DNA of 38,525 bases, taken from positions 1 through 38,525 of the forward strand of contig JALOMO010000017.1 in assembly GCA_025455395.1 (NCBI GenBank), written 5' to 3'. This document shows positions 9,413 through 27,638 of this stretch, in pieces. Origin of the DNA: Bacteroidales bacterium (lineage in GTDB: Bacteria > Bacteroidota > Bacteroidia > Bacteroidales > VadinHA17). The first letter of the stretch is position 1. The number at the start of each line of letters is the position of its first letter. Made by a program: the position numbers and the translations under genes. The notes below the pieces were generated by a model. The model was not told the origin of the DNA. It saw nothing but the letters and a program-made list of their open reading frames with translations, and ran no database searches.

Positions 9413-9442
9413 CAAAGATAGTAAAAGAGGTACAAGGAGCAA
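9413..9442 (-). promoter_or_regulatory. prfB promoter
   Basis: On the minus strand TTG (9442-9440), a 19-nt spacer and TATCTTTG (9420-9413) fit the Bacteroidota -33/-7 pattern. The -7 box is 17 nt from the prfB ATG. The TTG lies inside the flanking 7-bp minisatellite, at the junction of its first two units. Confidence 0.7.
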
Positions 9443-9520
9443 GGAGCATGGAGCATGGAGCAGGGGGCAGGGAGCAGGGAGCAGGGGGCAGGGAGCAGGG
9501 AGCATGGAGCATGGAGCATG
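9434..9520. repeat. 7-bp minisatellite, 12 units, with higher-order structure
   Basis: Twelve tandem heptamers plus a partial unit: AAGGAGC x2, ATGGAGC x2, then twice the triplet AGGGGGC-AGGGAGC-AGGGAGC, then ATGGAGC x2 and ATG. The central part is therefore a 21-bp unit repeated twice, flanked on both sides by the same pair of heptamers. One strand is almost purely purine except for the C and occasional T. Confidence 0.95.
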
Positions 9521-9548
9521 CAGAAAGGATTGAATATATGTAAGGATT

Positions 9549-9617: not shown

Positions 9618-9656
9618 GTGAAACTTCATTTAACTCTGTGAAATCAGTGGTTAAAA
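9618..9656. repeat. Direct repeat, copy 1
   Basis: Begins GTGAAACTTCATTTAACTC and ends GTGGTTAAA. It matches copy 2 at 9721-9759 except for one substitution and one inserted T. Its ACTCTGTG is complemented by CACAGAGT shortly downstream, so the unit can also fold locally. Confidence 0.85.
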
Positions 9657-9720
9657 ACTTTCACCACAGAGTGACACTGAGTAATTTACAGAGTTACACT
9701 GTTGTCTTCAAAACAAAACA

Positions 9721-9759
9721 GTGAAACTCCATTTTAACTCTGTGAAATCAGTGGTTAAA
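9721..9759. repeat. Direct repeat, copy 2
   Basis: Second copy of the element at 9618-9656, starting GTGAAACTCCATTTTAACTC, with the copies beginning 103 nt apart in the same orientation. Confidence 0.85.
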
Positions 9760-12872: not shown

Positions 12873-15533
12873 CTATGCCTTTACATCGACCGATGATGCA
12901 TGGCCCGAAGATTCCGAATAAGGTACGGTAAAGTAAAAAGTGCTTCCCTGGCCCGGGGTTGAGTCAATCCTTATTGTTCCTCCAAGCAGTACCACAAAAG
13001 CCCTGGCAATGGTCAGGCCCAATCCTGTTCCAGAGGTCTTTGTGTTTTTAGGATCTTCAACCTGGTAGAACCGATCGAAGACCTTTGCCTTTTGGTCCGC
13101 TGTTATCCCAATACCGGTGTCTGTTACAAAAAATTCCAGGTCGCTTCCTTTAAGAGTGTAACCGAATGAGACAGATCCTTCAGAAGTAAATTTTATTGCA
13201 TTGCTGATGAGGTTAGATAAAACCTGCAGGAGCTTATTACCATCAGTCATTATTACAGCCCTGTGATCAGATAGATTTCTGTTGAATGATAGTCTCAGCT
13301 TTTTCTGTCCTGCCTGGTGAGAGAAATGGTCATAGGCTGTGACGAGTATCCGGTTCACATTTGTCTCAGTAACAGAGATCCTGGTCTGGCCTGTTTCAAT
13401 ATTGGATATCTCTACAATGTCTGAAATAATCGACAGGAGCTGGTTACTGCTCTGGCTGACCATATCAATATAGTACCTTCTATCTTCGTCGGAGAGGTCA
13501 GGTGAATCAAGCAGGCCTGTAAAACCAACGATTGCATTCATTGGTGTTCTGATCTCATGCGAGATGTTATGAAGAAATGCTGTCTTAAGCCTGTCACTCT
13601 CCTCTGCTTTTTCCTTTGCCGCGATGAGGTCAAGCAATATCTTCTTTTTGTCTGTTATGTCATGAATGATGGAGTGCAGTAGTTCCTTGCCGTCAATCTC
13701 GACCCTGCTAGAGAAGACCTCTACCTCGCGTATGCTTCCGTCAGCAAGCCTGTGATTGGATTCGAACCTGATGCTTCGCTGGTTGACCACATTCTTCATC
13801 AGCTGATCAACGCCCTTCTGGGACATTGTGCTAATTTCATATATCTTCATCTTCCTGAGCCTCTCAGTAGGCCAGCCGTAGAACTCTGCAGCCGCATTGT
13901 TGGCATCGATGACTGATCCGTCTGCAGGATTTATTATCAGCTTTATGGCCGAGTGTGATTCAAAGAGTTTCCTGAAGCGTTCCTCGCTCCTGCGGAGCTC
14001 ATCCTCCGCCTCCTTCCTCAATGTAATATCTGTCGCGACACCAAGTATAGCCGGTTTTTCGTACCCGGGATGGATATATGGTATCTTCACTGTCTGGAAC
14101 CATCCCAGTGAGCCGTCATCGCGTAAGACCTGCTCCTCAGGTATCATCACCGGGATACCCTTTTCGATAACCTTCAGGTCAGCCTTGCGGTACGACTCTA
14201 CCTGCTCGGGCGTAGCGCCGTAATCAGCGTCTGTCTTCCCCTGTGTCTCCGACGGCAGCATCCCGAAGACGCTTGCCAGCGCCTTATTGGTAAGCAGAAA
14301 GCGGCCGTCAATGTCTTTGGCAAAGATATAGCTGGGGACGAGGTCAATGATTCTCTGAAGGTGCTCGCTGTGTATCCGCAGCTCCTCAGCCACCCTCTTC
14401 CTTTCGGTAATATCGACGCCTATTGCGATTATTGCTTCTTCTCCAAAATAGGTTGTCCTGAAAAGGCTTACCTCCTTGGGGAATACCTCCCCGTTCTTTC
14501 TCATCCCCCAGAATTCAAATCTCTGCGGCGTGCCCGAGAATGCCTCAGCTATCATTCTCATAACCTCAGTAAGGTCGTTCCTTCCCGGGGCACTCAGAAA
14601 CTCAGGAGTCTTACCTACAAAGAAATCGCGCTCATAACCATACATCTGTACCGCCCCGTCATTGACATTAACGAACTTCCCCTGACGGTTAAGTATATAC
14701 ATGGCGCTTGCAATACTGTTGAAGAGTGTCCTGTAGCTCTCTGCGCTCTCGCGCAGCAGGTCAGCATCTCTCTTTCGCCCGGTGACATCGCGCATGGTGT
14801 CCATGAAGAACTCCGGCTGCCCCTCTTCATTCTTTATGGCGGTGGTATTGAATTCAGCCCAGAAGAATGATCCGTCTTTCCTCAGGACACGCATCTCAAC
14901 ATTGCTGACAGAACCTTTTTCAATCAGTTTTGCCCAGCTTTCACGAGCCAGACTGTGATCTTCAGGATAAATCAGATCAAATGCATTTTTTTCAAAAAGC
15001 TCCCCGTCGCTTTTGTAACCGAGCATTAAACGCTTCCTCTGGTTGAACCAAAGTAGTTTTCCCATTTTGTCAAACAGTGAGATGCCGTCCTGCATCATCT
15101 CAAGCAGGGTCTGGTATTTTGTCTCACTCTCCCTGAGAGCTGTCTCGGCAGCTTTTCTCCGGGTAATATCTGTCAGCGCCCCCTCGAAATAAATCAACTC
15201 TCCCTGATGATCATACACAGGATGAGAGTGTTCCAGGACAAAGATCTCAGTGCCGTCCCTGCGTCTCAGCCGAAGCTCAATATCGCCGTCGGTACTTTTC
15301 TCTACCAGCTCATTTAGAAGCTTATCGCGATCATCAGGATTGACGTAGAGGTCACGTGCAATATTCAGGGTTTTAAGTTCCTCCTCGCTATCATAGCCCA
15401 GCATCCTGACAAGCGCAGGATTGGCGGTTAAGATCTTACCGTCAGGTGTGCTCTGATAAATGCCCTCCCGGACATTCTCAAACAGCGACCGATACTTCTC
15501 TTCCTCTGAAAGGCTCCGCCCCCGGATTTTCAT
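12873..15533 (-). CDS. Cytoplasmic five-PAS sensor histidine kinase
   Basis: An 886-aa protein with five consecutive PAS/PAC units (about 8-132, 138-258, 265-383, 390-508 and 515-632), each closing with a D[IV]T[RGED][RK]K-type motif. A HisKA dimerisation domain follows with the phosphoacceptor H-box HNISHEIRTPMNAIVGF near residue 660, then an HATPase_c domain with an N-box (NLISNAIKF), VTDTGIGI and GTGLGLTIA. No membrane segment and no receiver domain are present, so it should sense a cytoplasmic signal and phosphorylate a separate regulator, none of which is encoded beside it. It is transcribed with the flippase 7 nt downstream. Ligands of the PAS domains cannot be read from sequence. Confidence 0.93.
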   Translation of the reverse strand: MKIRGRSLSEEEKYRSLFENVREGIYQSTPDGKILTANPALVRMLGYDSEEELKTLNIARDLYVNPDDRDKLLNELVEKSTDGDIELRLRRRDGTEIFVLEHSHPVYDHQGELIYFEGALTDITRRKAAETALRESETKYQTLLEMMQDGISLFDKMGKLLWFNQRKRLMLGYKSDGELFEKNAFDLIYPEDHSLARESWAKLIEKGSVSNVEMRVLRKDGSFFWAEFNTTAIKNEEGQPEFFMDTMRDVTGRKRDADLLRESAESYRTLFNSIASAMYILNRQGKFVNVNDGAVQMYGYERDFFVGKTPEFLSAPGRNDLTEVMRMIAEAFSGTPQRFEFWGMRKNGEVFPKEVSLFRTTYFGEEAIIAIGVDITERKRVAEELRIHSEHLQRIIDLVPSYIFAKDIDGRFLLTNKALASVFGMLPSETQGKTDADYGATPEQVESYRKADLKVIEKGIPVMIPEEQVLRDDGSLGWFQTVKIPYIHPGYEKPAILGVATDITLRKEAEDELRRSEERFRKLFESHSAIKLIINPADGSVIDANNAAAEFYGWPTERLRKMKIYEISTMSQKGVDQLMKNVVNQRSIRFESNHRLADGSIREVEVFSSRVEIDGKELLHSIIHDITDKKKILLDLIAAKEKAEESDRLKTAFLHNISHEIRTPMNAIVGFTGLLDSPDLSDEDRRYYIDMVSQSSNQLLSIISDIVEISNIETGQTRISVTETNVNRILVTAYDHFSHQAGQKKLRLSFNRNLSDHRAVIMTDGNKLLQVLSNLISNAIKFTSEGSVSFGYTLKGSDLEFFVTDTGIGITADQKAKVFDRFYQVEDPKNTKTSGTGLGLTIARAFVVLLGGTIRIDSTPGQGSTFYFTVPYSESSGHASSVDVKA

Positions 15534-15716
15534 TTTAACAGTATTGCAGTTGACCAGACCACAGTTGCACTTCTACAAATATCATAATAAAATCAATCAA
15601 TTTCAATATTATCCGGACAAATCATAAAATCTGATCTGGCGGAGACTATTCGCAGGCAGAGGGTGATAGAATTCCAGTAAGTTATTTGCACATTTGTATC
15701 CGGCAAAGGGAACAAA

Positions 15717-16856
15717 ATGGTTATTGCGGTTAATGCCCGGACGCTGAAGAGGTCTCCGGGCGACGGTATAGGATGGTTCACCCATGAAGTTATCAGGCGT
15801 ATCATAGCTGATCACCCGGAGCACAGGTTCGTGCTTATCAGTGACAGGAGATATGACACACTGCCTCTCGCCGGTGACAATATTGAATATCTTATTATCC
15901 CGCTGCGCAACGTGCATCCTGCTATCTGGTATCTCTGGCATGAGCTGCTTCTTCCCGGCGTTCTTAAGAAGGTAAAAGCTGACCTGTATATTGCCCCTGA
16001 CGGACTGATGCCGCTGCGCACTTCTGTTCCTTGCATCCCGGTGATACATGACCTGAACCATGAGCATCGCCCCAAAGACATACCGTGGTCAGAAAGAATG
16101 TACTACCGCCATTATTTCCCGCTCTTTGCCGCCAAGGCGGTGAGGGTAGCCACGGTGTCGGATTTCTCTGCCGGAGACATTTCGCGTATTTATGGTATCG
16201 ACCGCAAAAAGATTGATGTTGTTCCCAACGGTGTGGCAGATATCTTTTCGCCGCCGCTGCCGGGTGAGGCAGAGGAGACGAGGAAGGAATATTGTGGTGG
16301 CAGGCCTTATTTTCTTTTCGTCAGCAACTTTTCGCCGAGGAAGAATGTCGAGACGGTGATAAAGGCTTACGATATCTTCAGGAGGGAGAGCAGGAATGAA
16401 CACAGGCTGTTGCTTGCAGGCAGGAGGTTATACCTCACGGGGGCTATCGACCGTGCAATTGAGGATTCACCTTACAGTCAGGATATAATATTTACCGGTT
16501 CTGTGGGGCGTGATGTCTTGCGAAGGCTTTACGGTGCGGCTGAGGCTCTTGTATTCGTTCCGTGGCTCGAGGGTTTTGGCATACCGGTGGTAGAGGCGCA
16601 GCGATGCGGCACGCCGTGTATCCTGTCTGACACCTCGTCACTGCCGGAGGTAAGTGGCGGCGCAGCGCTCTGCGCCGGCCCCGCCGGCGCAGAGGCCATA
16701 GCCGGGGCTATGGCCCGCCTCGCCACAGACGAGGCGCTGCGCCGCCACCTATCTGAACAAGGCATCTTAAACTCCCAGCGATACTCATGGGACAACGCCG
16801 CAAAAAAAATGTGGGACTGCATCACCAGTGCATTAAACCCAATTCATGATGCTTAA
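15717..16856 (+). CDS. Glycosyltransferase family 4
   Basis: A 379-aa GT-B fold retaining glycosyltransferase of the GT4 type. The acceptor domain starts [25 protein letters not shown]. The donor-binding half has [22 protein letters not shown] near residue 197, then [42 protein letters not shown], with the E-x7-E region typical of GT4. It probably adds a sugar to a surface glycan. It is divergent from the sensor kinase (183-nt gap with only TTATTTGC/CACATTTG promoter candidates) and overlaps rnhB by 11 nt. The codons for residues 313-344 are much more GC-rich than the rest and build the cloverleaf-like structure listed separately, yet this part still aligns without gaps to other GT4 proteins. 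Confidence 0.92.
16654..16748. repeat. Cloverleaf-like set of nested perfect inverted repeats inside the GT4 gene
   Basis: An outer 14-bp stem pairs GTGGCGGCGCAGCG (16654-16667) with its exact complement at 16735-16748. Inside it are three hairpins: CTCTGCGCCGGC (16668-16679) with 16683-16694, loop CCC; GCCATAGC (16695-16702) with 16707-16714, loop CGGG; and CCTCG (16718-16722) with 16730-16734, loop CCACAGA plus two flanking bases. Only about 17 of 95 bases stay unpaired. All stems are perfect Watson-Crick. The stretch is entirely coding. Confidence 0.95.
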
Positions 16857-17451
16857 ACAATACTACCACCCCACCCTTGCAGAGGCCGGCTGCGACGAGG
16901 CAGGCAGAGGATGTCTCGCCGGACCCGTCTTCGCTGCCGCTGTCATACTGCCCAAAGACTACCGTAATAATGCCCTCAATGACTCCAAAAAACTTACCCC
17001 CCTGCAACGCGAAAAACTCCGCCATGAGATCATCTCCGATGCAATAGCCTGGGAGGTAGCCTCATGCACCAACAGCGAGATAGACGCAATGAATATCCTC
17101 AGGGCTTCAATAACAGCCATGCACCGGGCTATCTGCAGACTGATCCCTCAGCCTCAGCACCTCCTTATAGACGGTAACAGATTCTATCCTTATGGCAACA
17201 TACCCCATCACACAATAGTCCGCGGCGACGCCACATACCTCTCTGTCGCTGCAGCCTCTATACTCGCCAAAACAGAACGTGACCGCTTCATGGAAGAACT
17301 CGATACACTTTTCCCGCAATATGGCTGGCGTCATAATAAAGGCTACCCAACCCCTGAACACCGTAAAGCAATAATCGACCACGGCATCTCACCCTACCAC
17401 CGCCTAACATTTAATCTTAGAGAGATGCAGTCCGAACTCCGTTTCTTATAA
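16846..17451 (+). CDS. rnhB: Ribonuclease HII
   Basis: RNase HII removes ribonucleotides and RNA primers from DNA duplexes. The 201-aa protein has the catalytic GCDEAGRG motif (D17, E18), the DGNRF block with the third acidic residue, [12 protein letters not shown] and the [14 protein letters not shown] segment, all diagnostic of type 2 RNase H. It begins inside the last codons of the GT4 gene (11-nt overlap); ATG-ATG gives two possible starts one codon apart. The type 1 enzyme RnhA is encoded 3 kb downstream on the same strand. Confidence 0.95.
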
Positions 17452-17487
17452 AATGTTAAAGTCATCATTCCGCAATAACTAAATTAA

Positions 17488-17495
17488 TATCTTTG
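17488..17495 (+). promoter_or_regulatory. -7 box of the S46 peptidase gene
   Basis: TATCTTTG matches TAnnTTTG exactly, 32 nt before the chosen ATG at 17528 and behind the rnhB stop. No good -33 TTG was found. Confidence 0.5.
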
Positions 17496-17527
17496 GCCCT
17501 TTGCTGAAAACAATCAACTTATATCTC

Positions 17528-19678
17528 ATGAGAAAACTAATTGCAACAATTATCATCCTTATCACCTTCGCCGGCTCAAGGGCAAAGGCTGATGAAGGGA
17601 TGTGGATCCTTCCCTTACTCGAGAAACTGAATATCGGCACCATGACCGAAATGGGGCTGAAACTTACAGCCGAGGATATCTACAGCATCAACCAGGCAAG
17701 CCTGAAAGATGCCATCGTTATTTTCGGCGGCGGATGCACCGCTGAGATAGTATCAGCTGAAGGCCTTCTGCTTACAAACCACCATTGCGGTTACGGTCAG
17801 ATACAGAATCACAGTACCGTTGAGCACGACTACCTCAACAACGGCTTCTGGGCAATGACACGCGCAGAGGAGCTTTCAAACCCGGGCCTCAGCGTCAGCT
17901 TCCTTGTCCGCATAGAAGATATGACAGCAAGAATGCTTTCCAAAGTAACTCCTGCTATGACAGAAGCAGAAAGGCGTGAGGCGCTTATGGCTGAGAATGC
18001 TGTCATCACTGCTGAGGCAACCAAGGGTAACCACTACCGCGCACAGGTCCAACCCTTCTATGGCGGTAACCAGTACTTCCTCCTCGTGTACGAGATCTAC
18101 AGTGACGTAAGACTCGTTGGCACTCCGCCTAACTCAATTGGCAAGTATGGTCACGATACCGATAACTGGATGTGGCCACGTCATACAGGCGACTTCAGCG
18201 TATTCAGGGTCTACATGGGCCCCGACGGCAAACCTGCACAGTACTCGGCAGATAATGTCCCTCTAAAACCAAAGCACTACCTTCCGATATCAATCAAACC
18301 CCTTCAGAAAAATGACTTCGCCATGGTGATGGGCTACCCGGGTGGTACCACCAGGTATATGACCTCATACGAGGTTGACGAGGCAATGAAGATCACCAAT
18401 GCCAACAGGATCAAGATCCGCGATGCACGCCAGGAGATATGGATGGAAGATATGATGGCCGACCCGAAAGTCAATATCCAGTACTCATCAAAATATGCCG
18501 GTTCATCAAACTACTGGAAGTTCTCGATCGGACAGAACGAAGGTCTTGAAAGACTGCGCACAGCCTCAAAGAAGGCAGCCTTCGAGGCTGAGTTCATGAA
18601 ATGGGTGAAGGCTGACGCCGCACGTACCGAAAAGTACGGCAATGCCCTCTCACTCATTGAGAATGCCGTTAAGAACAGGGCAGAAAAATACAACGTTCAG
18701 CAGTACCTCAACGAGACCTTCAGGGGTTCATGCGAGATGATCGCCTTTGCTTCACAGATGACAGCACTGGAAGAGGCTCTGACAAAAGGTGAAGCAGACA
18801 AGGTTGCTGATATTACCGGCAGGATGTTAAAGAACATGGATAACTTCTATGGCGATTACAACTATCCGACCGACAGAAAGATGACCAGGGCTATGATCAG
18901 GCTCTACAAGGCTGACATCGATCCGAAATACTGGCCCGACTTCTATGCGACTATCGACAAGAAGTTCAAAGGAAACGTTGATGTATTCGTTGATGACATG
19001 TTCACGAAGTCCATCTTCACCACCCCCGATAAATTCAAGGCTTTCCTTGCAAAACCTGACATCAAGGTGCTTTCAAAAGATCCTGCATTCATAGTAGCAA
19101 AATCAATCTCAGCACTTGGTACAACACTTCAGAAAGATCTTGCCGGTTTCAGCGCAGACCTTACAAAGGGACAGCGTACATACCTGGCTGGGGTGATGGA
19201 GTATGCCCCTGACAAGACACAGTATCCGGATGCCAACTTCACTATGAGGTTGACCTATGGCAAAGTGCTTGATTACTACCCTTATGACGCAGTTCATTAC
19301 AACTGGTACACGACTCTTGACGGTGTAATCCAGAAGTACAAGGAGGGCGACTATGAGTTTGACCTGCCCGGGCGACTGATCGAACTAAACAACAAGAAAG
19401 AGTTCGGCAGGTATGCTGCACCGGAAGGTTATATGCCGGTATGCTTCATCACAGACAATGACATCACCGGTGGTAACTCGGGCAGCCCGGTCATCAACGG
19501 CAACGGCGAGCTCATTGGTCTCGCCTTTGACGGCAACTGGGAAGCTATGACAGGCAACATCGCCTTCGAACCTGACCTGCAGAGATGTATCAATGTCGAC
19601 ATCCGCTATGTATTATGGGTCATTGACATCTATTCAGGTGCCGGTCACCTTCTGAAAGAGATGGATATCAGGCAGTAA
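17528..19678 (+). CDS. S46 family dipeptidyl-peptidase (DPP7/DPP11 type)
   Basis: Exported serine peptidases of this family release dipeptides from the N-termini of peptides and feed amino-acid-fermenting Bacteroidota. The start at 17528 gives a signal peptide (MRKLIATIIILITFAGSRAKA) and a 716-aa protein, the usual length. DEGMWILPLLEKLNI follows, then TNHHCGYG with the catalytic histidine (residues 85-86) and GNSGSP with the nucleophile near S651. The downstream FDGNW carries Gly where, from memory of the family, DPP11 enzymes have an Arg that selects acidic residues, so a DPP7-like hydrophobic preference is the better guess. It has its own -7 box and is followed by a terminator. Confidence 0.92.
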   Translation: MRKLIATIIILITFAGSRAKADEGMWILPLLEKLNIGTMTEMGLKLTAEDIYSINQASLKDAIVIFGGGCTAEIVSAEGLLLTNHHCGYGQIQNHSTVEHDYLNNGFWAMTRAEELSNPGLSVSFLVRIEDMTARMLSKVTPAMTEAERREALMAENAVITAEATKGNHYRAQVQPFYGGNQYFLLVYEIYSDVRLVGTPPNSIGKYGHDTDNWMWPRHTGDFSVFRVYMGPDGKPAQYSADNVPLKPKHYLPISIKPLQKNDFAMVMGYPGGTTRYMTSYEVDEAMKITNANRIKIRDARQEIWMEDMMADPKVNIQYSSKYAGSSNYWKFSIGQNEGLERLRTASKKAAFEAEFMKWVKADAARTEKYGNALSLIENAVKNRAEKYNVQQYLNETFRGSCEMIAFASQMTALEEALTKGEADKVADITGRMLKNMDNFYGDYNYPTDRKMTRAMIRLYKADIDPKYWPDFYATIDKKFKGNVDVFVDDMFTKSIFTTPDKFKAFLAKPDIKVLSKDPAFIVAKSISALGTTLQKDLAGFSADLTKGQRTYLAGVMEYAPDKTQYPDANFTMRLTYGKVLDYYPYDAVHYNWYTTLDGVIQKYKEGDYEFDLPGRLIELNNKKEFGRYAAPEGYMPVCFITDNDITGGNSGSPVINGNGELIGLAFDGNWEAMTGNIAFEPDLQRCINVDIRYVLWVIDIYSGAGHLLKEMDIRQ

Positions 19679-19965: not shown

Positions 19966-20550
19966 ATGAACTTCGACCTTATTGAGATAGTGGCCACATT
20001 CATGGTCCTGTTTGCAATCATCGACATCCCCGGCTCTATCCCTATAATACTGAATATCAAGGCTAAAACAGGCAACGTCAATGCCGGTAAGGCCACCCTG
20101 GTATCACTTGGGATCTTCCTTGCCTTTCTGGTCTTCGGCGAAAAACTGCTGGGATTATTCGGTATCGACGCCAGCTCTTTCGCCATCGCCGGTTCTTTTA
20201 TCATCTTTCTTCTCGGTATGGAGATGGTCCTCGGAGCAGAATTTTTCAAACATGACTCTCCTGGCGGAGGAACAATTGTTCCAATCGCATTCCCTCTTAT
20301 CGCCGGTGCAGGATCAATCACCACTATTCTCTCATTAAGAGCAGAGTATGAGCCTGTCAATATTCTTGTCGCCCTGCTCCTCAACATGATTATTGTCTAC
20401 ATCGTCCTGAGGATGACATCAACAATTGAGAGATGGCTCGGCCCTACCTGGTTGCATATACTGAAGAAGTTCTTCGGCATTATCCTGATAGCAATAGCCG
20501 TCAGACTATTTATTAATAACACCGGTATAAACCTGCCTCATGGCTCATGA
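19966..20550 (+). CDS. MarC family inner-membrane protein
   Basis: A 194-aa protein with about six membrane segments and the MarC-family features (DIPGSIPIIL near the N-terminus, GSFIIFLLGMEMV, the PIAFPLIAGAGSITTI signature around 104-119). MarC proteins were once linked to antibiotic resistance, which was not upheld; the transported substrate, if any, is unknown. I start the gene at 19966 (MNFDLIEIVATFMVLFAIID) because this is the family N-terminus and lies 15 nt after a good promoter; the frame stays open upstream only because the minisatellites lack stops. It overlaps rnhA by 11 nt. Confidence 0.88.
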   Translation: MNFDLIEIVATFMVLFAIIDIPGSIPIILNIKAKTGNVNAGKATLVSLGIFLAFLVFGEKLLGLFGIDASSFAIAGSFIIFLLGMEMVLGAEFFKHDSPGGGTIVPIAFPLIAGAGSITTILSLRAEYEPVNILVALLLNMIIVYIVLRMTSTIERWLGPTWLHILKKFFGIILIAIAVRLFINNTGINLPHGS

Positions 20551-21019
20551 GGTCACCATCTATACTGACGGAGCCTGCAGCGGTAACCCCGGCCCGGGTG
20601 GCTACGGCGTGGTGCTTATTTCCGGACGCCACAGGAAGGAGCTCTCTGAAGGGTTCAGGCTGACAACCAATAACAGGATGGAACTCCTGGCAGCAATCAA
20701 AGGCCTGGAGGCACTGAAAAAACCTGGAACAGACGTAAAGCTGCATACCGACTCGCAATACCTTGTCAATGCGGTCAATCAGGGATGGCTGTTTGGATGG
20801 GAAAAAAAACATTTTGCAAAAAAGAAAAACCCTGACCTCTGGATCCGCTTTCTGAACGTCTACAGGCGCCATAAAGTGACGCTCATCTGGATCAAAGGAC
20901 ATAATAACAACCCTGAAAATGAACGCTGTGACACACTCGCCGTTGCTGCTTCAAGAAACAGCAACCTCACCGATGACACAGGATATCATCCGGAGGATGA
21001 CAATGCCTCACTGCTCTGA
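20540..21019 (+). CDS. rnhA: Ribonuclease HI
   Basis: RNase HI cleaves the RNA strand of RNA-DNA hybrids. The 159-aa protein has the catalytic acids in YTDGACSGNPGPGGYG (D10), RMELLAAIKGLE (E48), HTDSQYL (D71) and ENERCDTLA (D near 134), plus the basic-protrusion segment WLFGWEKKHFAKKKNPDLW that helps hold the hybrid. A short non-conserved tail follows the core. It starts within the end of marC (11-nt overlap) and is probably read from the marC promoter. An A8 run at about residue 91 is in frame. Confidence 0.95.
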   Translation: MAHEVTIYTDGACSGNPGPGGYGVVLISGRHRKELSEGFRLTTNNRMELLAAIKGLEALKKPGTDVKLHTDSQYLVNAVNQGWLFGWEKKHFAKKKNPDLWIRFLNVYRRHKVTLIWIKGHNNNPENERCDTLAVAASRNSNLTDDTGYHPEDDNASLL

Positions 21020-22097: not shown

Positions 22098-22217
22098 TAA
22101 CATGACTGTCTGTCACTTTTCAGTCTCCCCCAAAAAAATACAGTGCCGGATGCAGCAACCAGCCCCTTTTGCCGGTCTTTATACGTATTTGCATTTTGGA
22201 CTTTTACACCTACCGCC

Positions 22218-24854
22218 ATGAAAAGAACCTTATTCATTGCCCTTTTGGCATTTCTATGCACTTTTCTCAGTGCGCAGACTCCAGGAGAGAAAAAAAACTA
22301 CAGAGCAACATTCATCACATCTCCCCCGGTTATTGACGGGGTGATAGATGACGAGAGCTGGCAGACTATCCCCTGGGAGGGCGATTTCATTCAGTTTGAA
22401 CCTGTCAACGGCGGCCCCGTCTCCCAGAAAACAGAGTTCAAAGTTCTCTTTGACGAAAACAATATTTATGTCGCCATTAAAGCATGGGACACAGCACCTG
22501 ACAGCATCAGCAGACGAATCTCACGACGCGATAATGCCGACGGCGACTTTGTCGGAGTATCATTTGACAGCTATCATGACCTCCGGACAGGATTTACATT
22601 TATCGTAAATGCTGCCGGCGTAAAAAACGACTTCATCTGGTCAAACGACGGTCAGAACGAGGATGACACCTGGGACCCGATCTGGTTCACAAAGGCAGAA
22701 ATGTATGACTGGGGCTGGGCTGCCGAGATAAAAATACCCCTTACACAGCTTAGATTCAGAATCTCAGACGGCGGAATCTGGGGGATGGAAGTGGTAAGAA
22801 ACTTGTACCGGAATCAGGAATTCTCAACATGGCAGTTCATCGACCGCAATTCATCAGGTCTGGTTCATAATTTCGGTGAGATCAGTGGCCTGCAGGGTAT
22901 CAAACCACGTAAACAGGCTGACATCACACCCTTTGCAGTGGGAAGTTATGAAAGATACGAAGAGGAAGAGGGCAATCCGTTTGCAGGCGGATCAGACCTT
23001 AAGGGAAACGTCGGACTCGATGCCAAGATCGGGATAACAAACAACATGACTCTTGACCTTACAATCAACCCCGACTTTGGCCAGGTTGAAGCCGACCCGT
23101 CAGAGGTCAATCTCACTGCCTATGAGACCTTCTTCGAGGAGAAGAGACCGTTCTTCATTGAGGGAAAGAGCATAACCAGCTTTAAAGTAGGCATCGGCGA
23201 CGGCGATATCGGCAATGATAACCTGTTTTATTCCAGGAGAATAGGCCGCAGCCCTCATCTCTATGCTGATACTGAGGAAAATGAATTTGCCTCGTCGCCC
23301 CGTAATACGCCAATAATCAGCGCAGCAAAAATAACCGGTAAGACATCTGACGGACTCTCGGTTGGCATCCTCGAGGCCGTGACAGCTGAGGCAAAAGCAG
23401 AGATTGACTCCTTGGGAGAAAGAAGCTACCAGACAGTTGAACCACTGACAAACTATCTTGTCACAAGGGTCATGAAAGACTACGGGGGCGGTAAAACAGT
23501 CATTGGAGGCGCGTTCACCAACACTCACCGCTTCCTTGACGGAACAGGTATTAACGGACTGGTGACAAACGCCAACACCGCCGGAATAGATTTCACACGT
23601 TTCTTCGGAAAAGAACGTGAGTGGATGCTTTCCACCTCCGCCGCTGTAAGTAACCTTACAGGCAGCACCGAGGCAATTGAAGCCCTTCAGTATTCATCTG
23701 CACATTATTATCAGAGACCCGACGCTGACTATGTTGAAGTCGACCCGACCCGTACATCACTCAACGGACACGGAGGAAACATTCAATTCGGGAAGGTCGG
23801 CGGCCACTGGAATTTTGCAGCTTTCGGGTTATGGAAATCACCCGGATTTGATATCAATGACCTCGGATTCATGCAGAGCGCAGATGAACTGACTGCCATC
23901 TTCTGGTCGGCATATATAATAGATAAGCCTTTCAGCATTTTCCGCAGGATCAGATTCAATGGCAACCAGTGGAACTTCTGGGACTGGGGCGGCACCTTCC
24001 TTAACACCGGAGGCAACCTGAGCCTCTTTACACAGTTTAAAAACCTCTGGACCCTGAATATAGGAGGAAACATTAACAGTGAATCAACCGATAACACAAA
24101 ACTCCGAGGCGGACCGGCAATGTACCTTCCTTCGAATACCAATGTCTTTTTAAATATCGGTACAAACTCTTCAAAGAAGCTGTCAATGGATTTCTTCGGA
24201 AACATAAATACCGGGGCGGAAAACTCTTCAAGGTCAATCAATGCCGGATTGGAACTGACAGCCAAACCGGGTCAGTCATTCTATATTAGCCTCTCACCCT
24301 CAATCTCCAACCGGTACAATGTGCTTCAGTATGTAACCAGAAAATCATACGGCGATGATGATCGTTATATTCTTGCCACTATCAACCAACAGATCCTCAA
24401 TATGTCATTGAGATTAAATTATAATATCACACCCGAACTTACCATACAATACTGGGGTCAGCCCTTCCTGGCAGCAATGGATTACAGTGAATACAAGATG
24501 GTAACAGATCCGAAAGCCGATGCTTTCACAAACCGTTTTCATACTTACTCAGATGACCAGATCAGCTTCAACGATAGTGAGAACCGCTATTACATAGATG
24601 AAAACACCGATGGTACAACCGACTATAGCTTTAGTAACCCCGATGGTAACTTTGATGAATTTCTTTCGAACCTGGTTGTACGCTGGGAGTACCGCCCTGG
24701 TTCCATCATATATGTAGTCTGGTCACAGAACAGGGGGTATTTTGACAACACCGGGGAGTTCTCTATGAGCCAGAACATGTCAAATCTTTTCTCGACCAAC
24801 AAACCGTATGACACTTTCCTGATTAAGTTCACATACAGGTTCGGACTGCGGTAG
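22218..24854 (+). CDS. DUF5916 outer-membrane protein with CBM9-like N-terminal domain (copy 1)
   Basis: An 878-aa exported protein. The ATG at 22218 gives signal peptide MKRTLFIALLAFLCTFLSAQ; a GTG 25 codons upstream would only mask it. A beta-sandwich of the carbohydrate-binding family 9 type follows (SPPVIDGVIDDESWQ to about residue 235), then the DUF5916 hallmark LTINPDFGQVEADPSEVNLTAYE and FFEEKRPFFIEG, then a long C-terminal beta-rich part ending FLIKFTYRFGLR, the aromatic end expected of an outer-membrane barrel. The function is not established; sugar or peptide binding and uptake are possible. A close paralogue follows 141 nt downstream. No SusC/SusD pair is nearby. Confidence 0.88.
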   Translation: MKRTLFIALLAFLCTFLSAQTPGEKKNYRATFITSPPVIDGVIDDESWQTIPWEGDFIQFEPVNGGPVSQKTEFKVLFDENNIYVAIKAWDTAPDSISRRISRRDNADGDFVGVSFDSYHDLRTGFTFIVNAAGVKNDFIWSNDGQNEDDTWDPIWFTKAEMYDWGWAAEIKIPLTQLRFRISDGGIWGMEVVRNLYRNQEFSTWQFIDRNSSGLVHNFGEISGLQGIKPRKQADITPFAVGSYERYEEEEGNPFAGGSDLKGNVGLDAKIGITNNMTLDLTINPDFGQVEADPSEVNLTAYETFFEEKRPFFIEGKSITSFKVGIGDGDIGNDNLFYSRRIGRSPHLYADTEENEFASSPRNTPIISAAKITGKTSDGLSVGILEAVTAEAKAEIDSLGERSYQTVEPLTNYLVTRVMKDYGGGKTVIGGAFTNTHRFLDGTGINGLVTNANTAGIDFTRFFGKEREWMLSTSAAVSNLTGSTEAIEALQYSSAHYYQRPDADYVEVDPTRTSLNGHGGNIQFGKVGGHWNFAAFGLWKSPGFDINDLGFMQSADELTAIFWSAYIIDKPFSIFRRIRFNGNQWNFWDWGGTFLNTGGNLSLFTQFKNLWTLNIGGNINSESTDNTKLRGGPAMYLPSNTNVFLNIGTNSSKKLSMDFFGNINTGAENSSRSINAGLELTAKPGQSFYISLSPSISNRYNVLQYVTRKSYGDDDRYILATINQQILNMSLRLNYNITPELTIQYWGQPFLAAMDYSEYKMVTDPKADAFTNRFHTYSDDQISFNDSENRYYIDENTDGTTDYSFSNPDGNFDEFLSNLVVRWEYRPGSIIYVVWSQNRGYFDNTGEFSMSQNMSNLFSTNKPYDTFLIKFTYRFGLR

Positions 24855-24878
24855 AGACCAAAATGCAGAGGTCCGGAC

Positions 24879-24910
24879 GAGCGGGAATAATTTGTTCCCG
24901 CTCATTTTTT
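24879..24910 (+). terminator. Terminator between the two DUF5916 genes
   Basis: GAGCGGGAA (24879-24887) pairs perfectly with TTCCCGCTC (24895-24903) around TAATTTG, followed by ATTTTTT. It separates transcription of the paralogues. Confidence 0.9.
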
Positions 24911-24949
24911 ATAAGAACTTTTAACGCTCTGCTCTGAATTATATTTCTA

Positions 24950-24957
24950 TAAATTTG
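24950..24957 (+). promoter_or_regulatory. -7 box of the second DUF5916 gene
   Basis: TAAATTTG matches TAnnTTTG exactly, 38 nt before the ATG at 24996 and downstream of the terminator. No clear -33 TTG is present. Confidence 0.5.
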
Positions 24958-24995
24958 CATTACCTGAAATAACTTATACCGGAAAGCACCTTGCC

Positions 24996-27638
24996 ATGAA
25001 AAAAGTCCTGCTGTTATTATTTTTGTGCCTGCCTCTCTGGTTACAGAGCCAGGATTATGAAAAGAAAAGCTATACAACCTTTCGGATAAGCACCCCTCCG
25101 GTTATTAACGGACAGCTTGATGATGAAGCCTGGAGCGCCGGTGAATGGGGTGGAGACTTCTTCCAGTTCGAACCCGCTGAAGGAGCCCCGGTGCGTCAGA
25201 AGACCGAATTCAAGATTCTCTATGATGACTCCGATATCTACATAGCCATAAAGGCATATGACAATGCCCCTGACAGCATTGTCTCGAGGATGACCCGCCG
25301 TGATGACACAGATGGCGATGCAGTGATGGTTGCCCTCGATTCATATTTCGACCAGCGCACTGCCTTTGGCTTCGGCGTCAGTGCTGCAGGTGTCAAAGGC
25401 GATCTCATCTGGACCGATGACGGCATGAATGAGGACGAGACCTTTGACCCGATCTGGTATGTTAAAACAGCCATTTATGACTGGGGATGGGCAGCCGAAA
25501 TGCGAATCCCTCTTACGCAGCTGCGCTTCTCAGCAAGTGAAAACCAGGTCTGGGGGCTCGAAGTAATAAGGGAAATTTACCGGCACGATGAGACCGATCT
25601 CTGGCAGCCAATAGCCAGAAATGCTTCCGGGCTTGTTCATAATGCCGGACTGATGAATGGCCTGAGCAATATAAAGCCGCGTACTCTCTTCGACATCACT
25701 CCCTACGGAGTGGCAAAACTTGAAACCTATGAGGCCGAAGAAGGCAACCCTTGGCTCGACGGATCTGATTTCAAGGTCAATGCCGGCCTCGATGCCAAAA
25801 TAGGCATCACAAACAATATGATCATGAGCCTTACCCTTAATCCTGATTTCGGCCAGGTTGAGGCTGACCCCTCGGAAGTGAACCTTACAGCCTTTGAATC
25901 TTACTTCCGGGAGAAGAGACCATTCTTTATTGAAGGAAAAAATATCACAAGTTTCGGACTGGGTATCGGTGACGGCGATGTGGGTAATGATAATCTCTTC
26001 TACTCGAGGAGAATCGGCCGCAGCCCCAGACACCCCGCCAACCCCGATGAGTCTGAATATGCCTATACTCCTGCATTCATCCCTATCCTAGGTGCTGCAA
26101 AGCTGACCGGCAAATCCGGCTCCGGACTCTCAGTAGGTGCGATTGATGCTATGACCTCAGAGGTAAACACAAAGATTTTCAATGAGGAAACCGGCGAAAC
26201 ATCATATGTCAAGGCCGAACCCTTTGCCAACTATGCTGTGGGTAGGGTACAGAAAGATTTCAAGGGAGGAAAGACAATTATCGGGGGTATGATGACCAGC
26301 ACGATCAGGTCACTCGATGAGGAGACTGAAGATTATTTTCATAAGTCAGCAACAGCAGCAGGGTTGGACTTCACTCAGTATTTCAAGGATATGAATTATA
26401 TGCTTCAGATCCGTACTGCCTTCAGTAACATCACCGGAAATGAAAATGACATTGCACGGACCCAGCGGTCTCCTGTACATAATTATGTCAGACCCGATGC
26501 AGACTATGTGGAATATGACCCTAACAGGACAACACTAAGCGGCTACGGAGGTAACCTCGTGGCCGGAAAGATCGGTGGCAATCTTAACCTGCTCTATCTC
26601 GCTTCCTGGAAGTCCCCCGGATTTGAGCTTAACGACCTTGGATATATGAGGGTCGCCGACCAGTTCCTTGGCGTCGGCGTCATAAGCTACAGCATAAATA
26701 AACCCTTCAGCATATTTAACCGCATGTCATTCGGTACCAATGTTATCCATGTAGCTGATTTCGGCGGAAACACACTGCTGATTGGAGATGAATTCTCCTG
26801 GCAGGCAGGGTATAAGAATCTTTGGAATACATACTTCGGAGGAGGAGTAAACAGCCGTGAAAGAGACAATCTCCTTCTTCGCGGCGGACCCTCAATGCTG
26901 ATGCCTGGAACAGCCAGGTTTTATGGAGGTGTAAGTACAAGCGAACGAAAAAGACTCGTGGCGGAGCTCGATCTTCGCTATGGTTGGGGATTTGAAAACT
27001 ACTATGAAGAATACGAGCTGGGAGTTGAACTTAGCTACAGGCCCTTCAACACACTTACCCTGAGTGCCGAACCGGAGTGGAGCAAGTCGAGGAATATAAT
27101 GCAGTATGTAGAAACCACAGAAAATGACGGAGACTCTGATGATCCTCGATATATTTTCGGATCAATAGATCAGGAAATACTGAGTATATCTATCAGGATT
27201 GATTATAGCATCACTCCCGACCTTACAATTCAGTACTGGGGCCAGCCCTTCTTCGGATCAGGATCATATACTGATTTCAAATACATTACTGACCCCAATG
27301 CTGCCGTTTTCACTGACAGGTTTCATCCATACAATGAGAATGAGATAATATTTGATGAAGAGAACGGCAGCTATCAGGTTGATGAAGATATTGACGGCTC
27401 TTTTGACTACAGTTTTGAAAAACCCGATTTCACCGTGAGCGAGTTTCTGAGTAACCTGGTTGTTCGGTGGGAATTCCTTCCCGGTTCAACTGCATACCTT
27501 GTATGGTCACAGACCCGCGACTACTATACCGGTGACGGGTATTTCGATATGAGTGATCAAGTCCATGAACTGCTTACCGCCAGAAGACCATACAACGTCT
27601 TTCTCATCAAATTATCATACAGGTTTGGTCTCAGATAG
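24996..27638 (+). CDS. DUF5916 outer-membrane protein with CBM9-like N-terminal domain (copy 2)
   Basis: An 880-aa paralogue of the preceding protein with the same plan: signal peptide (MKKVLLLLFLCLPLWLQSQ), CBM9-like sandwich (TPPVINGQLDDEAWSAGEWGG), LTLNPDFGQVEADPSEVNLT with FFIEGKNITSFGLGIGDGD, and a barrel ending FLIKLSYRFGLR. Signature blocks are nearly identical between the copies, while loops such as the 385-415 region differ, so they come from an old duplication and may have separate ligands. It has its own promoter and terminator upstream. The tag gene starts 2 nt after its stop. Confidence 0.88.
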   Translation: MKKVLLLLFLCLPLWLQSQDYEKKSYTTFRISTPPVINGQLDDEAWSAGEWGGDFFQFEPAEGAPVRQKTEFKILYDDSDIYIAIKAYDNAPDSIVSRMTRRDDTDGDAVMVALDSYFDQRTAFGFGVSAAGVKGDLIWTDDGMNEDETFDPIWYVKTAIYDWGWAAEMRIPLTQLRFSASENQVWGLEVIREIYRHDETDLWQPIARNASGLVHNAGLMNGLSNIKPRTLFDITPYGVAKLETYEAEEGNPWLDGSDFKVNAGLDAKIGITNNMIMSLTLNPDFGQVEADPSEVNLTAFESYFREKRPFFIEGKNITSFGLGIGDGDVGNDNLFYSRRIGRSPRHPANPDESEYAYTPAFIPILGAAKLTGKSGSGLSVGAIDAMTSEVNTKIFNEETGETSYVKAEPFANYAVGRVQKDFKGGKTIIGGMMTSTIRSLDEETEDYFHKSATAAGLDFTQYFKDMNYMLQIRTAFSNITGNENDIARTQRSPVHNYVRPDADYVEYDPNRTTLSGYGGNLVAGKIGGNLNLLYLASWKSPGFELNDLGYMRVADQFLGVGVISYSINKPFSIFNRMSFGTNVIHVADFGGNTLLIGDEFSWQAGYKNLWNTYFGGGVNSRERDNLLLRGGPSMLMPGTARFYGGVSTSERKRLVAELDLRYGWGFENYYEEYELGVELSYRPFNTLTLSAEPEWSKSRNIMQYVETTENDGDSDDPRYIFGSIDQEILSISIRIDYSITPDLTIQYWGQPFFGSGSYTDFKYITDPNAAVFTDRFHPYNENEIIFDEENGSYQVDEDIDGSFDYSFEKPDFTVSEFLSNLVVRWEFLPGSTAYLVWSQTRDYYTGDGYFDMSDQVHELLTARRPYNVFLIKLSYRFGLR

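What the first reader, a model, noticed from the sequence alone, without database searches (positions are those of the whole stretch)
16654..16748. Cloverleaf of perfect inverted repeats hidden in a glycosyltransferase coding sequence
A 14-bp outer stem encloses three hairpins (12, 8 and 5 bp) arranged end to end, leaving only about 17 of 95 bases unpaired and no mismatch in any stem. The region encodes the GT4 C-terminal part SGGAALCAG...LRRHL, which matches the expected GT4 spacing (LPEV-G-AAL...EAIA...DEALR) without an insertion, so it is not simply an in-frame inserted palindrome. Codon choice is shifted to very GC-rich synonyms only here. Possibilities are a functional RNA or ssDNA structure controlling GT4/rnhB expression, a palindrome created by template switching, or a coding version of a dispersed palindromic element.
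Basis: seen in the sequence. Interest (0 to 1): 0.72.

Follow-up and report, generated by a model that had tools for sequence, protein, structure and literature searches.

The report
Conserved RNA cloverleaf inside a gene
A 96-base stretch inside a sugar-transferring enzyme gene folds into a four-armed cloverleaf that members of one uncultured bacterial genus have kept by matched mutations, some changing the protein, so the folded shape itself seems to do a job still unknown.

Summary
The cloverleaf is real: window 16653-16748, codons 313-344 of a GT4 glycosyltransferase, predicted -79 kcal/mol, z -7.7. It is a conserved element, not a chance palindrome. In an uncultured Bacteroidales genus all 19 aligned orthologous stretches fold into four arms. 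A covariance model finds it at one place in 20 of 22 genus genomes, in 0 of 95 other family genomes, and only in the window's own genome among 393 of the order and 395 of the phylum. Changes on both sides keep stems paired; several alter the protein. Synonymous constraint peaks exactly over the element. Ten outgroup orthologues have equal length and no fold. A dispersed palindrome is excluded; template switching is unlikely. Best reading: an element of the GT4-rnhB message, about 100 nt before an overlapping rnhB start, controlling processing or coupled expression. Function is inferred; action as RNA rather than DNA is favoured only modestly. Unexpectedly, third-position strand composition flips at the cloverleaf across the genus, unexplained.

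The parts
15717..16856 (+). GT4-family glycosyltransferase gene (379 aa) that carries the element in codons 313-344
   Evidence: ORF; Pfam Glycos_transf_1, Glyco_trans_1_4 and Glyco_transf_4
16653..16748 (+). 96-nt cloverleaf element (four-way junction) in the coding sequence
   Evidence: fold z -7.7; 19 aligned orthologues, 7 pairs with changes on both sides; synonymous conservation peak at codons 313-344
16654..16666 (+). outer helix H1, 5' arm (pairs with 16736-16748)
   Evidence: 99.6% of cells paired, 2 pairs with double changes
16736..16748 (+). outer helix H1, 3' arm
16669..16693 (+). helix H2 (16669-16679 with 16683-16693), loop 16680-16682
   Evidence: 99.0% of cells paired, 2 pairs with double changes, some non-synonymous
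16694..16715 (+). helix H3 (16694-16702 with 16707-16715), loop 16703-16706 variable
   Evidence: 97.5% of cells paired, 2 pairs with double changes; loop columns 51, 53 and 54 changed 6, 6 and 9 times
16717..16735 (+). helix H4, the least conserved arm; re-paired in another register in L021
   Evidence: 86.1% of cells paired in this register; alternative pairing in L021 and the L011-L019 group
16846..17451 (+). rnhB (RNase HII); start codon overlaps the GT4 stop, about 100 nt after the element
   Evidence: Pfam RNase_HII; spacing in relatives

Best explanation
Codons 313-344 of the GT4 gene carry a second, nucleotide-level function: a 96-nt four-way-junction fold that probably arose in the ancestor of this Bacteroidales genus, inside an older GT4-rnhB gene pair, and has been kept by selection. 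SHOWN by comparison: the fold, its single place per genome, its presence through the genus, changes on both sides of pairs, and constraint bounded by the element. INFERRED: the fold acts in the GT4-rnhB messenger RNA as a cis element about 100 nt before the rnhB start. There its long helices would be a site for double-strand-specific processing or a barrier to nuclease and ribosome, setting how much intact GT4 message and how much coupled RNase HII are made.
For: Four-armed fold in 19 of 19 aligned genus sequences (MFE -69 to -84), absent in 10 of 10 outgroup orthologues of equal length (-16 to -37). 96.3% of cells paired against 93.6% in shuffles; 21 cells with double changes against 5.4; covariation 0.134 against 0.082; 0 of 500 shuffles as high for these three. 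On a tree built without the element, helices 1-3 show 7 Watson-Crick to Watson-Crick double changes, 6 changes to G-U, 2 to A-C and 2 to other mismatches. Double changes at columns 23/35, 25/33 and 14/84 alter amino acids (V to A and D to G; S to G; A to G). Synonymous conservation is 0.84 inside (27 codons) against 0.49 outside (234), and the best 32-codon window starts at codon 313. One place per genome in 20 of 22 genus genomes. The element ends 97-98 nt before the Met1-equivalent of rnhB in 17 of 19, and stop and start overlap in 18 of 19. H1 has a mean pairing probability of 0.90 or more in a 496-nt context in 10 of 11 species tested.
Against: No transcript, probing or expression data were available for this uncultured genus. 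Strand preference is weak: the sense RNA is more stable than the antisense in 14 of 19 sequences (mean -1.6 kcal/mol; background sd 5.5), and L002-L005, the window's own group, go the other way. 6 G-U against 2 A-C changes in helices 1-3 is a small number, and in H4 it is 4 against 5. H4 in the named register has a probability of 0.02 or less in 5 of 11 species in context, and in L011 the outer stem has only 0.16. 233 of 500 shuffles reach the observed number of further pair types, and the shuffles do not allow for relatedness. L019 has a different spacing to rnhB (167 nt) and no overlap. GT4-rnhB adjacency is older than the element, so rnhB may be a bystander. The strand-composition flip at the element is not predicted by this explanation.
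Confidence: 0.5

Rival explanations
1. The cloverleaf is cut out of the GT4 message as a stable small RNA that acts in trans (an ORF-internal small RNA with its own target or protein partner).
For: Compact, highly stable fold with sharp edges of constraint; ORF-internal small RNAs such as FtsO are known in E. coli (PMC7815308, abstract and section 18).
Against: Most hairpin-loop positions vary (columns 51, 53 and 54 with 6, 6 and 9 changes; 73-75 with 6, 5 and 3), so pairing to a conserved target through the loops is unlikely. No comparable constraint just upstream that would mark an internal promoter (codons 289-304 score 0.57). No second locus found with the model.
Confidence: 0.2
2. The element works as DNA: a cruciform or folded single strand that is the site of a recurrent DNA transaction (protein binding, nicking, breakage and repair, or fork arrest).
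For: One place per genome. Strand composition at third codon positions flips at the element across the genus, with shifts also at position 2 of GT4 and position 1 of rnhB relative to outgroups, though not at position 1 of GT4 or position 2 of rnhB. Sense and antisense stabilities are similar.
Against: G-U pairs (G-T mismatches in DNA) arose at column pairs 12/86 and 17/41 and persist over clades of 14 (one reversal) and 9 sequences. The upstream half of the flip is missing in L021, which has the element. Two larger change points occur in a 360-kb sample of a congener. T enrichment expected upstream from single-strand C deamination is missing at NNY codons (0.46 against 0.44 and 0.49).
Confidence: 0.22
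3. Template switching between quasi-palindromic arms created and keeps correcting the palindrome without any function.
For: Perfect arms and paired changes are what such correction gives. By eye, outgroups L022 and L027 have 5-6 nt of complementarity at the place of H3 (sequences), though the MFE folds there do not use it.
Against: Correction would remove G-U pairs, yet they persist over clades; L005 shows a state that could be a half-finished compensation in H2, although weak tree supports leave it open; protein changes go with kept pairing. No comparable fold in 360 kb of a congener.
Confidence: 0.05
4. A mobile or dispersed palindromic element inserted in frame.
For: Palindromic, GC-rich, in a coding sequence.
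Against: One place per genome in 20 genomes, none in 95 other family genomes nor, in partly overlapping samples, in 392 of the order and 394 of the phylum other than the window's own; outgroup proteins have the same length over the segment; no phage match, no viral contig with the H2 pattern, and ten viral stretches with an outer-arm pattern do not match the model convincingly.
Confidence: 0.01

Closest known systems
High-stability regions of E. coli coding mRNAs with compensatory mutations (Mao et al. 2013, PMC3785496; abstract and section list seen)
   Same: Coding RNA folds under selection, with lowered synonymous rate and stability-restoring changes.
   Different: Those are studied genome-wide as many regions; this is one 96-nt four-way junction per genome, far outside the distribution in a 360-kb sample, with some non-synonymous compensation.
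ORF-internal small RNAs of E. coli such as FtsO (PMC7815308; abstract and section 18 seen)
   Same: A functional RNA lying inside a coding sequence.
   Different: FtsO is described there as a small-RNA sponge; here most loop positions are variable and no transcript is known.
Rickettsia palindromic elements in coding sequences (only a search listing seen; details recalled)
   Same: Palindromic DNA within open reading frames.
   Different: Those are dispersed in-frame insertions (recalled); this has one place per genome and is not an insertion.
Structured RNA motifs of Bacteroidales from comparative screens (PMC2864571; passages seen)
   Same: Candidate structured RNAs in the same order, such as Bacteroidales-1.
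   Different: That screen took intergenic regions, so a coding element would be missed; no Rfam family reaches its gathering score in the window.

Membership tests
Conserved structured RNA (covariation-supported) | Pairing kept by changes on both sides across species, above shuffles | tested here: met
   7 pairs (1 of 500 shuffles as high) and 21 cells (0 of 500) with double changes; further pair types not above shuffles (233 of 500)
Conserved structured RNA (covariation-supported) | Strand-specific stability or G-U use pointing to RNA | tested here: inconclusive
   6 G-U against 2 A-C in H1-H3, 4 against 5 in H4; sense more stable in 14 of 19
Conserved structured RNA (covariation-supported) | Transcribed and folded in the cell | not testable with these tools
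   no transcript data on hand for this uncultured genus
Dispersed palindromic element (Rickettsia palindromic element type) | Several copies per genome (recalled) | tested here: not met
   one place per genome in 20 genomes
Dispersed palindromic element (Rickettsia palindromic element type) | In-frame insertion relative to relatives (recalled) | tested here: not met
   ten outgroup orthologues have the same length over the segment
Intrinsic terminator | G+C-rich hairpin followed by a T run | tested here: not met
   the only terminator-like site in 15400-17700 is at 17634-17649, minus strand
tRNA or tmRNA | Recognised by ARAGORN | tested here: not met
   0 genes in the window
Known Rfam family | Match above gathering score | tested here: not met
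   none in the window; six sub-threshold matches in 16000-17500
RNase III processing site | Cleavage by RNase III in the double-stranded stems | not testable with these tools
   needs biochemistry; inferred only from helix length

The most novel reading that the evidence does not exclude
The cloverleaf is a single-copy chromosomal site at which a strand-specific DNA process starts or ends throughout the genus, leaving a reversal of strand composition centred on it. It would then be a new kind of coding-embedded DNA landmark beside an RNase H gene, with its own dedicated protein.
Probability: 0.12. Interest if true: 0.88.

Novelty: new variant of a known kind. Interest (0 to 1): 0.68.

Why it matters
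At least one main bacterial screen for structured RNA looked only between genes (PMC2864571, passages). This is a clear case inside a gene, apparently strong enough to make the protein change to preserve a fold, with one place per genome and restricted to one genus in the genomes searched. It offers some 20 natural variants for direct tests of what coding RNA folds do in bacteria. The coincident reversal of strand composition, if linked, would connect such a fold to how the DNA around it mutates.

Tried and rejected
Replication origin or terminus at the element: rejected on my reading of the skew tables. Genes on both strands, left and right, suggest about the same replication component of GC skew; within the window only the GT4 segment stands apart. 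No formal fit was made.

Antisense overlapping gene explaining the composition of GT4: rejected. Every genus member examined has stops in the register-matched antisense frame, at varying places (as few as one in L007 and two in L019).

A long hairpin of GT4 with rnhB was not tested directly. A generally structured GT4 message: no support. Flanks of up to 480 nt fold like their synonymous permutations (40 each), with 40 of 42 segments within |z| 2; exceptions are L003 up z -3.2 and outgroup L028 down z -3.5. The downstream segments run into rnhB in another frame, so 'synonymous' is only approximate there.

Viral or plasmid origin: no phage match; plasmid matches in 10 records cover at most 22% of the query at E 0.2-0.6; no viral contig with the GT4 protein patterns or the H2 pattern; an outer-arm pattern gave 10 stretches whose best model score is 19 bits, E 0.56.

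Alternative pairing of the 3' outer arm with an upstream GGCGCAGCG motif (16595-16603): seen. Its Ala codon 294 is well conserved (GCG in 17 of 19), but nine other four- or six-fold codons outside the element also score 0.7 or more, and L021 lacks the motif. Left open.

One search was a faulty alignment with a two-base second row (unused). The script stopped on a wrong file name after printing the alignments I used. Literature search returned nothing.

Full report
WHAT WAS CLAIMED. A 95-nt cloverleaf of inverted repeats in a GT4 gene at 16654-16748. The sequence, repeat list and fold confirm it. The MFE is -79.2 kcal/mol, 0 of 200 shuffles fold as well, z -7.7. The protein context makes GC-rich complementarity easier (many Ala, Gly and Arg codons), so I also recoded the same 32 residues: 0 of 20000 by window codon usage, 1 of 20000 by permuting the very same codons, and 0 of 20000 with GC-tilted usage reach -79.4. 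In 1922 fixed 100-nt windows it is first by MFE (-64.6) but not by shuffle z-score, where 21981, 19821 and 9541 lead.

WHO CARRIES IT. The window lies in an uncultured Bacteroidales genome; named relatives are MAGs such as UBA4788, UBA4772, UBA4070 and UBA1458. The GT4 protein has orthologues of 59-87% identity in its genus and of 41-48% in the ten outgroup loci used. Of 22 genus genomes 20 gave the element by model. The misses are G016, where an N run starts 15 codons before the element and the sequence resumes near its end, and G004 (71% complete), which gave one weak protein match not shown in the listing (E 8e-5). Alignment A2 holds 19 sequences, 18 of them distinct. L020 (G016) was dropped for its Ns. 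G014, whose gene is split over contigs, was left out of A2 but is found by the model.

CONSERVATION OF THE FOLD. All 19 fold into four arms (-69 to -84 kcal/mol), including L021 at 59% protein identity, while 10 of 10 outgroup orthologues of equal length do not (-16 to -37). For the named structure, 96.3% of cells are standard pairs (shuffles 93.6%), 7 pairs have changes on both sides, 21 cells do (5.4), and the covariation score is 0.134 (0.082); 0 or 1 of 500 shuffles reach these, though 233 of 500 reach the number of further pair types. Shuffles ignore relatedness; the slid controls, which keep it, give 0-3 such pairs. By helix: H1 99.6%, H2 99.0%, H3 97.5%, H4 86.1%. H4 is the weak one: L021 rebuilds it in another register and the L011-L019 group in part.

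EVENTS ON A TREE. With a tree from GT4 without the element plus rnhB (several supports only 57-59), helices 1-3 show 7 Watson-Crick double changes, 6 changes to G-U, 2 to A-C and 2 to other mismatches; H4 shows 1 double change, 4 to G-U, 5 to A-C and 8 to other mismatches. G-U pairs at columns 12/86 and 17/41 persist over clades of 14 (one reversal) and 9 sequences. Loop columns 51, 53 and 54 changed 6, 6 and 9 times against 0.59 per paired column. Protein changes go with pairing: L002-L004 read AGPAG where L006-L019 read VSPAD, by changes on both arms of H2; L005 reads AGPAD, with one mismatch, which could be an intermediate.

CONSTRAINT HAS THE ELEMENT'S EDGES. Among 19 sequences the chance that two share a synonymous codon is 0.84 in the element (27 codons) and 0.49 outside (234). 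Of all 32-codon windows the best begins at codon 313; the best non-overlapping one scores 0.58. For four- and six-fold codons it is 0.82 (19 codons) against 0.40 (131).

COPY NUMBER AND SPREAD. The covariance model finds one place per genome, also scored more weakly on its other strand, in 20 of 22 genus genomes and in 0 of 38 others. In the family it finds the same 20 of 117, none among the 95 outside the genus. In even samples of the order (393) and phylum (395) it finds only the window's own genome. Over 40 genomes the tool uses stricter filters, so weak relatives could be missed. No Rfam family reaches its threshold, no tRNA, no terminator at the site. In 360 kb of G006 nothing comes near it (-78.2 against -57.6).

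NEIGHBOURHOOD. GT4 is followed by rnhB (RNase HII) and an S46 peptidase, with a divergent polysaccharide-transporter gene in most relatives. The GT4-rnhB order is also in outgroup genera without the fold (7 of 10 outgroup loci have rnhB downstream), so the fold arose inside an old gene pair. In 17 of 19 genus members the element ends 97-98 nt before the Met1-equivalent position of rnhB (L019 167, L021 91). In 18 of 19 the rnhB start overlaps the GT4 stop, taking the nearest ATG, GTG or TTG at that position or one codon after it.

AN UNEXPECTED COINCIDENCE. Third-position composition of the coding strand changes at the element. In the window, fourfold sites of GT4 before it are G 54, C 32, T 49, A 18, and in rnhB G 5, C 48, T 23, A 20. 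With the element excluded, the best change point in GT4+rnhB lies within 16 codons of the element in 15 of 18 genus loci (all 18 within 31; log-likelihood gain 8 to 48) against 1 of 6 outgroup loci (gain 2 to 9) (L009 and L040 are the same genome and counted once). Pooled over 17 loci, GC skew goes from +0.45 in the 40 codons before to -0.51 just after, and AT skew from -0.28 to +0.29. GT4 is the most G/T-skewed of 238 sampled genes of G006, but its change point is only the third largest there, so such flips are rare, not unique. The upstream half is absent in L021. NNY codons upstream are not T-rich against the genome, so simple C deamination does not fit. I cannot explain it.

MECHANISM. What is shown is selection on the folded shape. 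That it acts in the message is inferred from its place in a coding strand, from persisting G-U pairs and from its stability in context (H1 in 10 of 11 species; L011 fails; H4 in the named register fails in 5 of 11). Against a firm RNA claim: sense is more stable in only 14 of 19, and the window's own group favours the antisense. The most likely use is control of the GT4-rnhB message by processing, protection or ribosome traffic just before the coupled rnhB start. Published E. [quoted passage not shown]

LITERATURE. The listings of nine searches showed no description of this element; the library is open-access only and most listed papers were not opened. A comparative screen seen in passages used intergenic regions (PMC2864571), which would miss it.

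Noticed in passing
window 15717-17451 and orthologues: Third-position strand composition flips at the cloverleaf across the genus (G/T-rich before, C/A-rich after); cause unknown.
   Followed up: partly
L016-L019, GT4 after residue about 45: Related species carry variable in-frame inserts in the N-terminal domain (L016, L017 and L018 aligned; L019 seen as a split match). By eye they look like degenerate repeats of a short unit; no DNA tandem repeat was called in L016.
   Followed up: partly
window 16595-16603: GGCGCAGCG upstream of the element could pair with the 3' outer arm and compete with the cloverleaf; kept in most of the genus, absent in L021.
   Followed up: partly
window 9419-9543 and 9629-9759: Array of about 7-nt units (GCAGGGA/GCATGGA) and an exact 27-nt direct repeat with starts 104 nt apart, in a region without an ORF of 100 aa.
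   Followed up: no
window 20540-21019: An RNase H (rnhA-type) gene is the third gene after rnhB (RNase HII), so both RNase H types sit near the element.
   Followed up: no
window 22143-27638: Two tandem DUF5916 proteins with a CBM9-like domain, probably paralogues of each other.
   Followed up: no
L020 2392-2486 (G016): An N run begins 15 codons before the element and the sequence resumes near its end; this assembly has four further N runs in the locus, so a link to the hairpin is only a guess.
   Followed up: no
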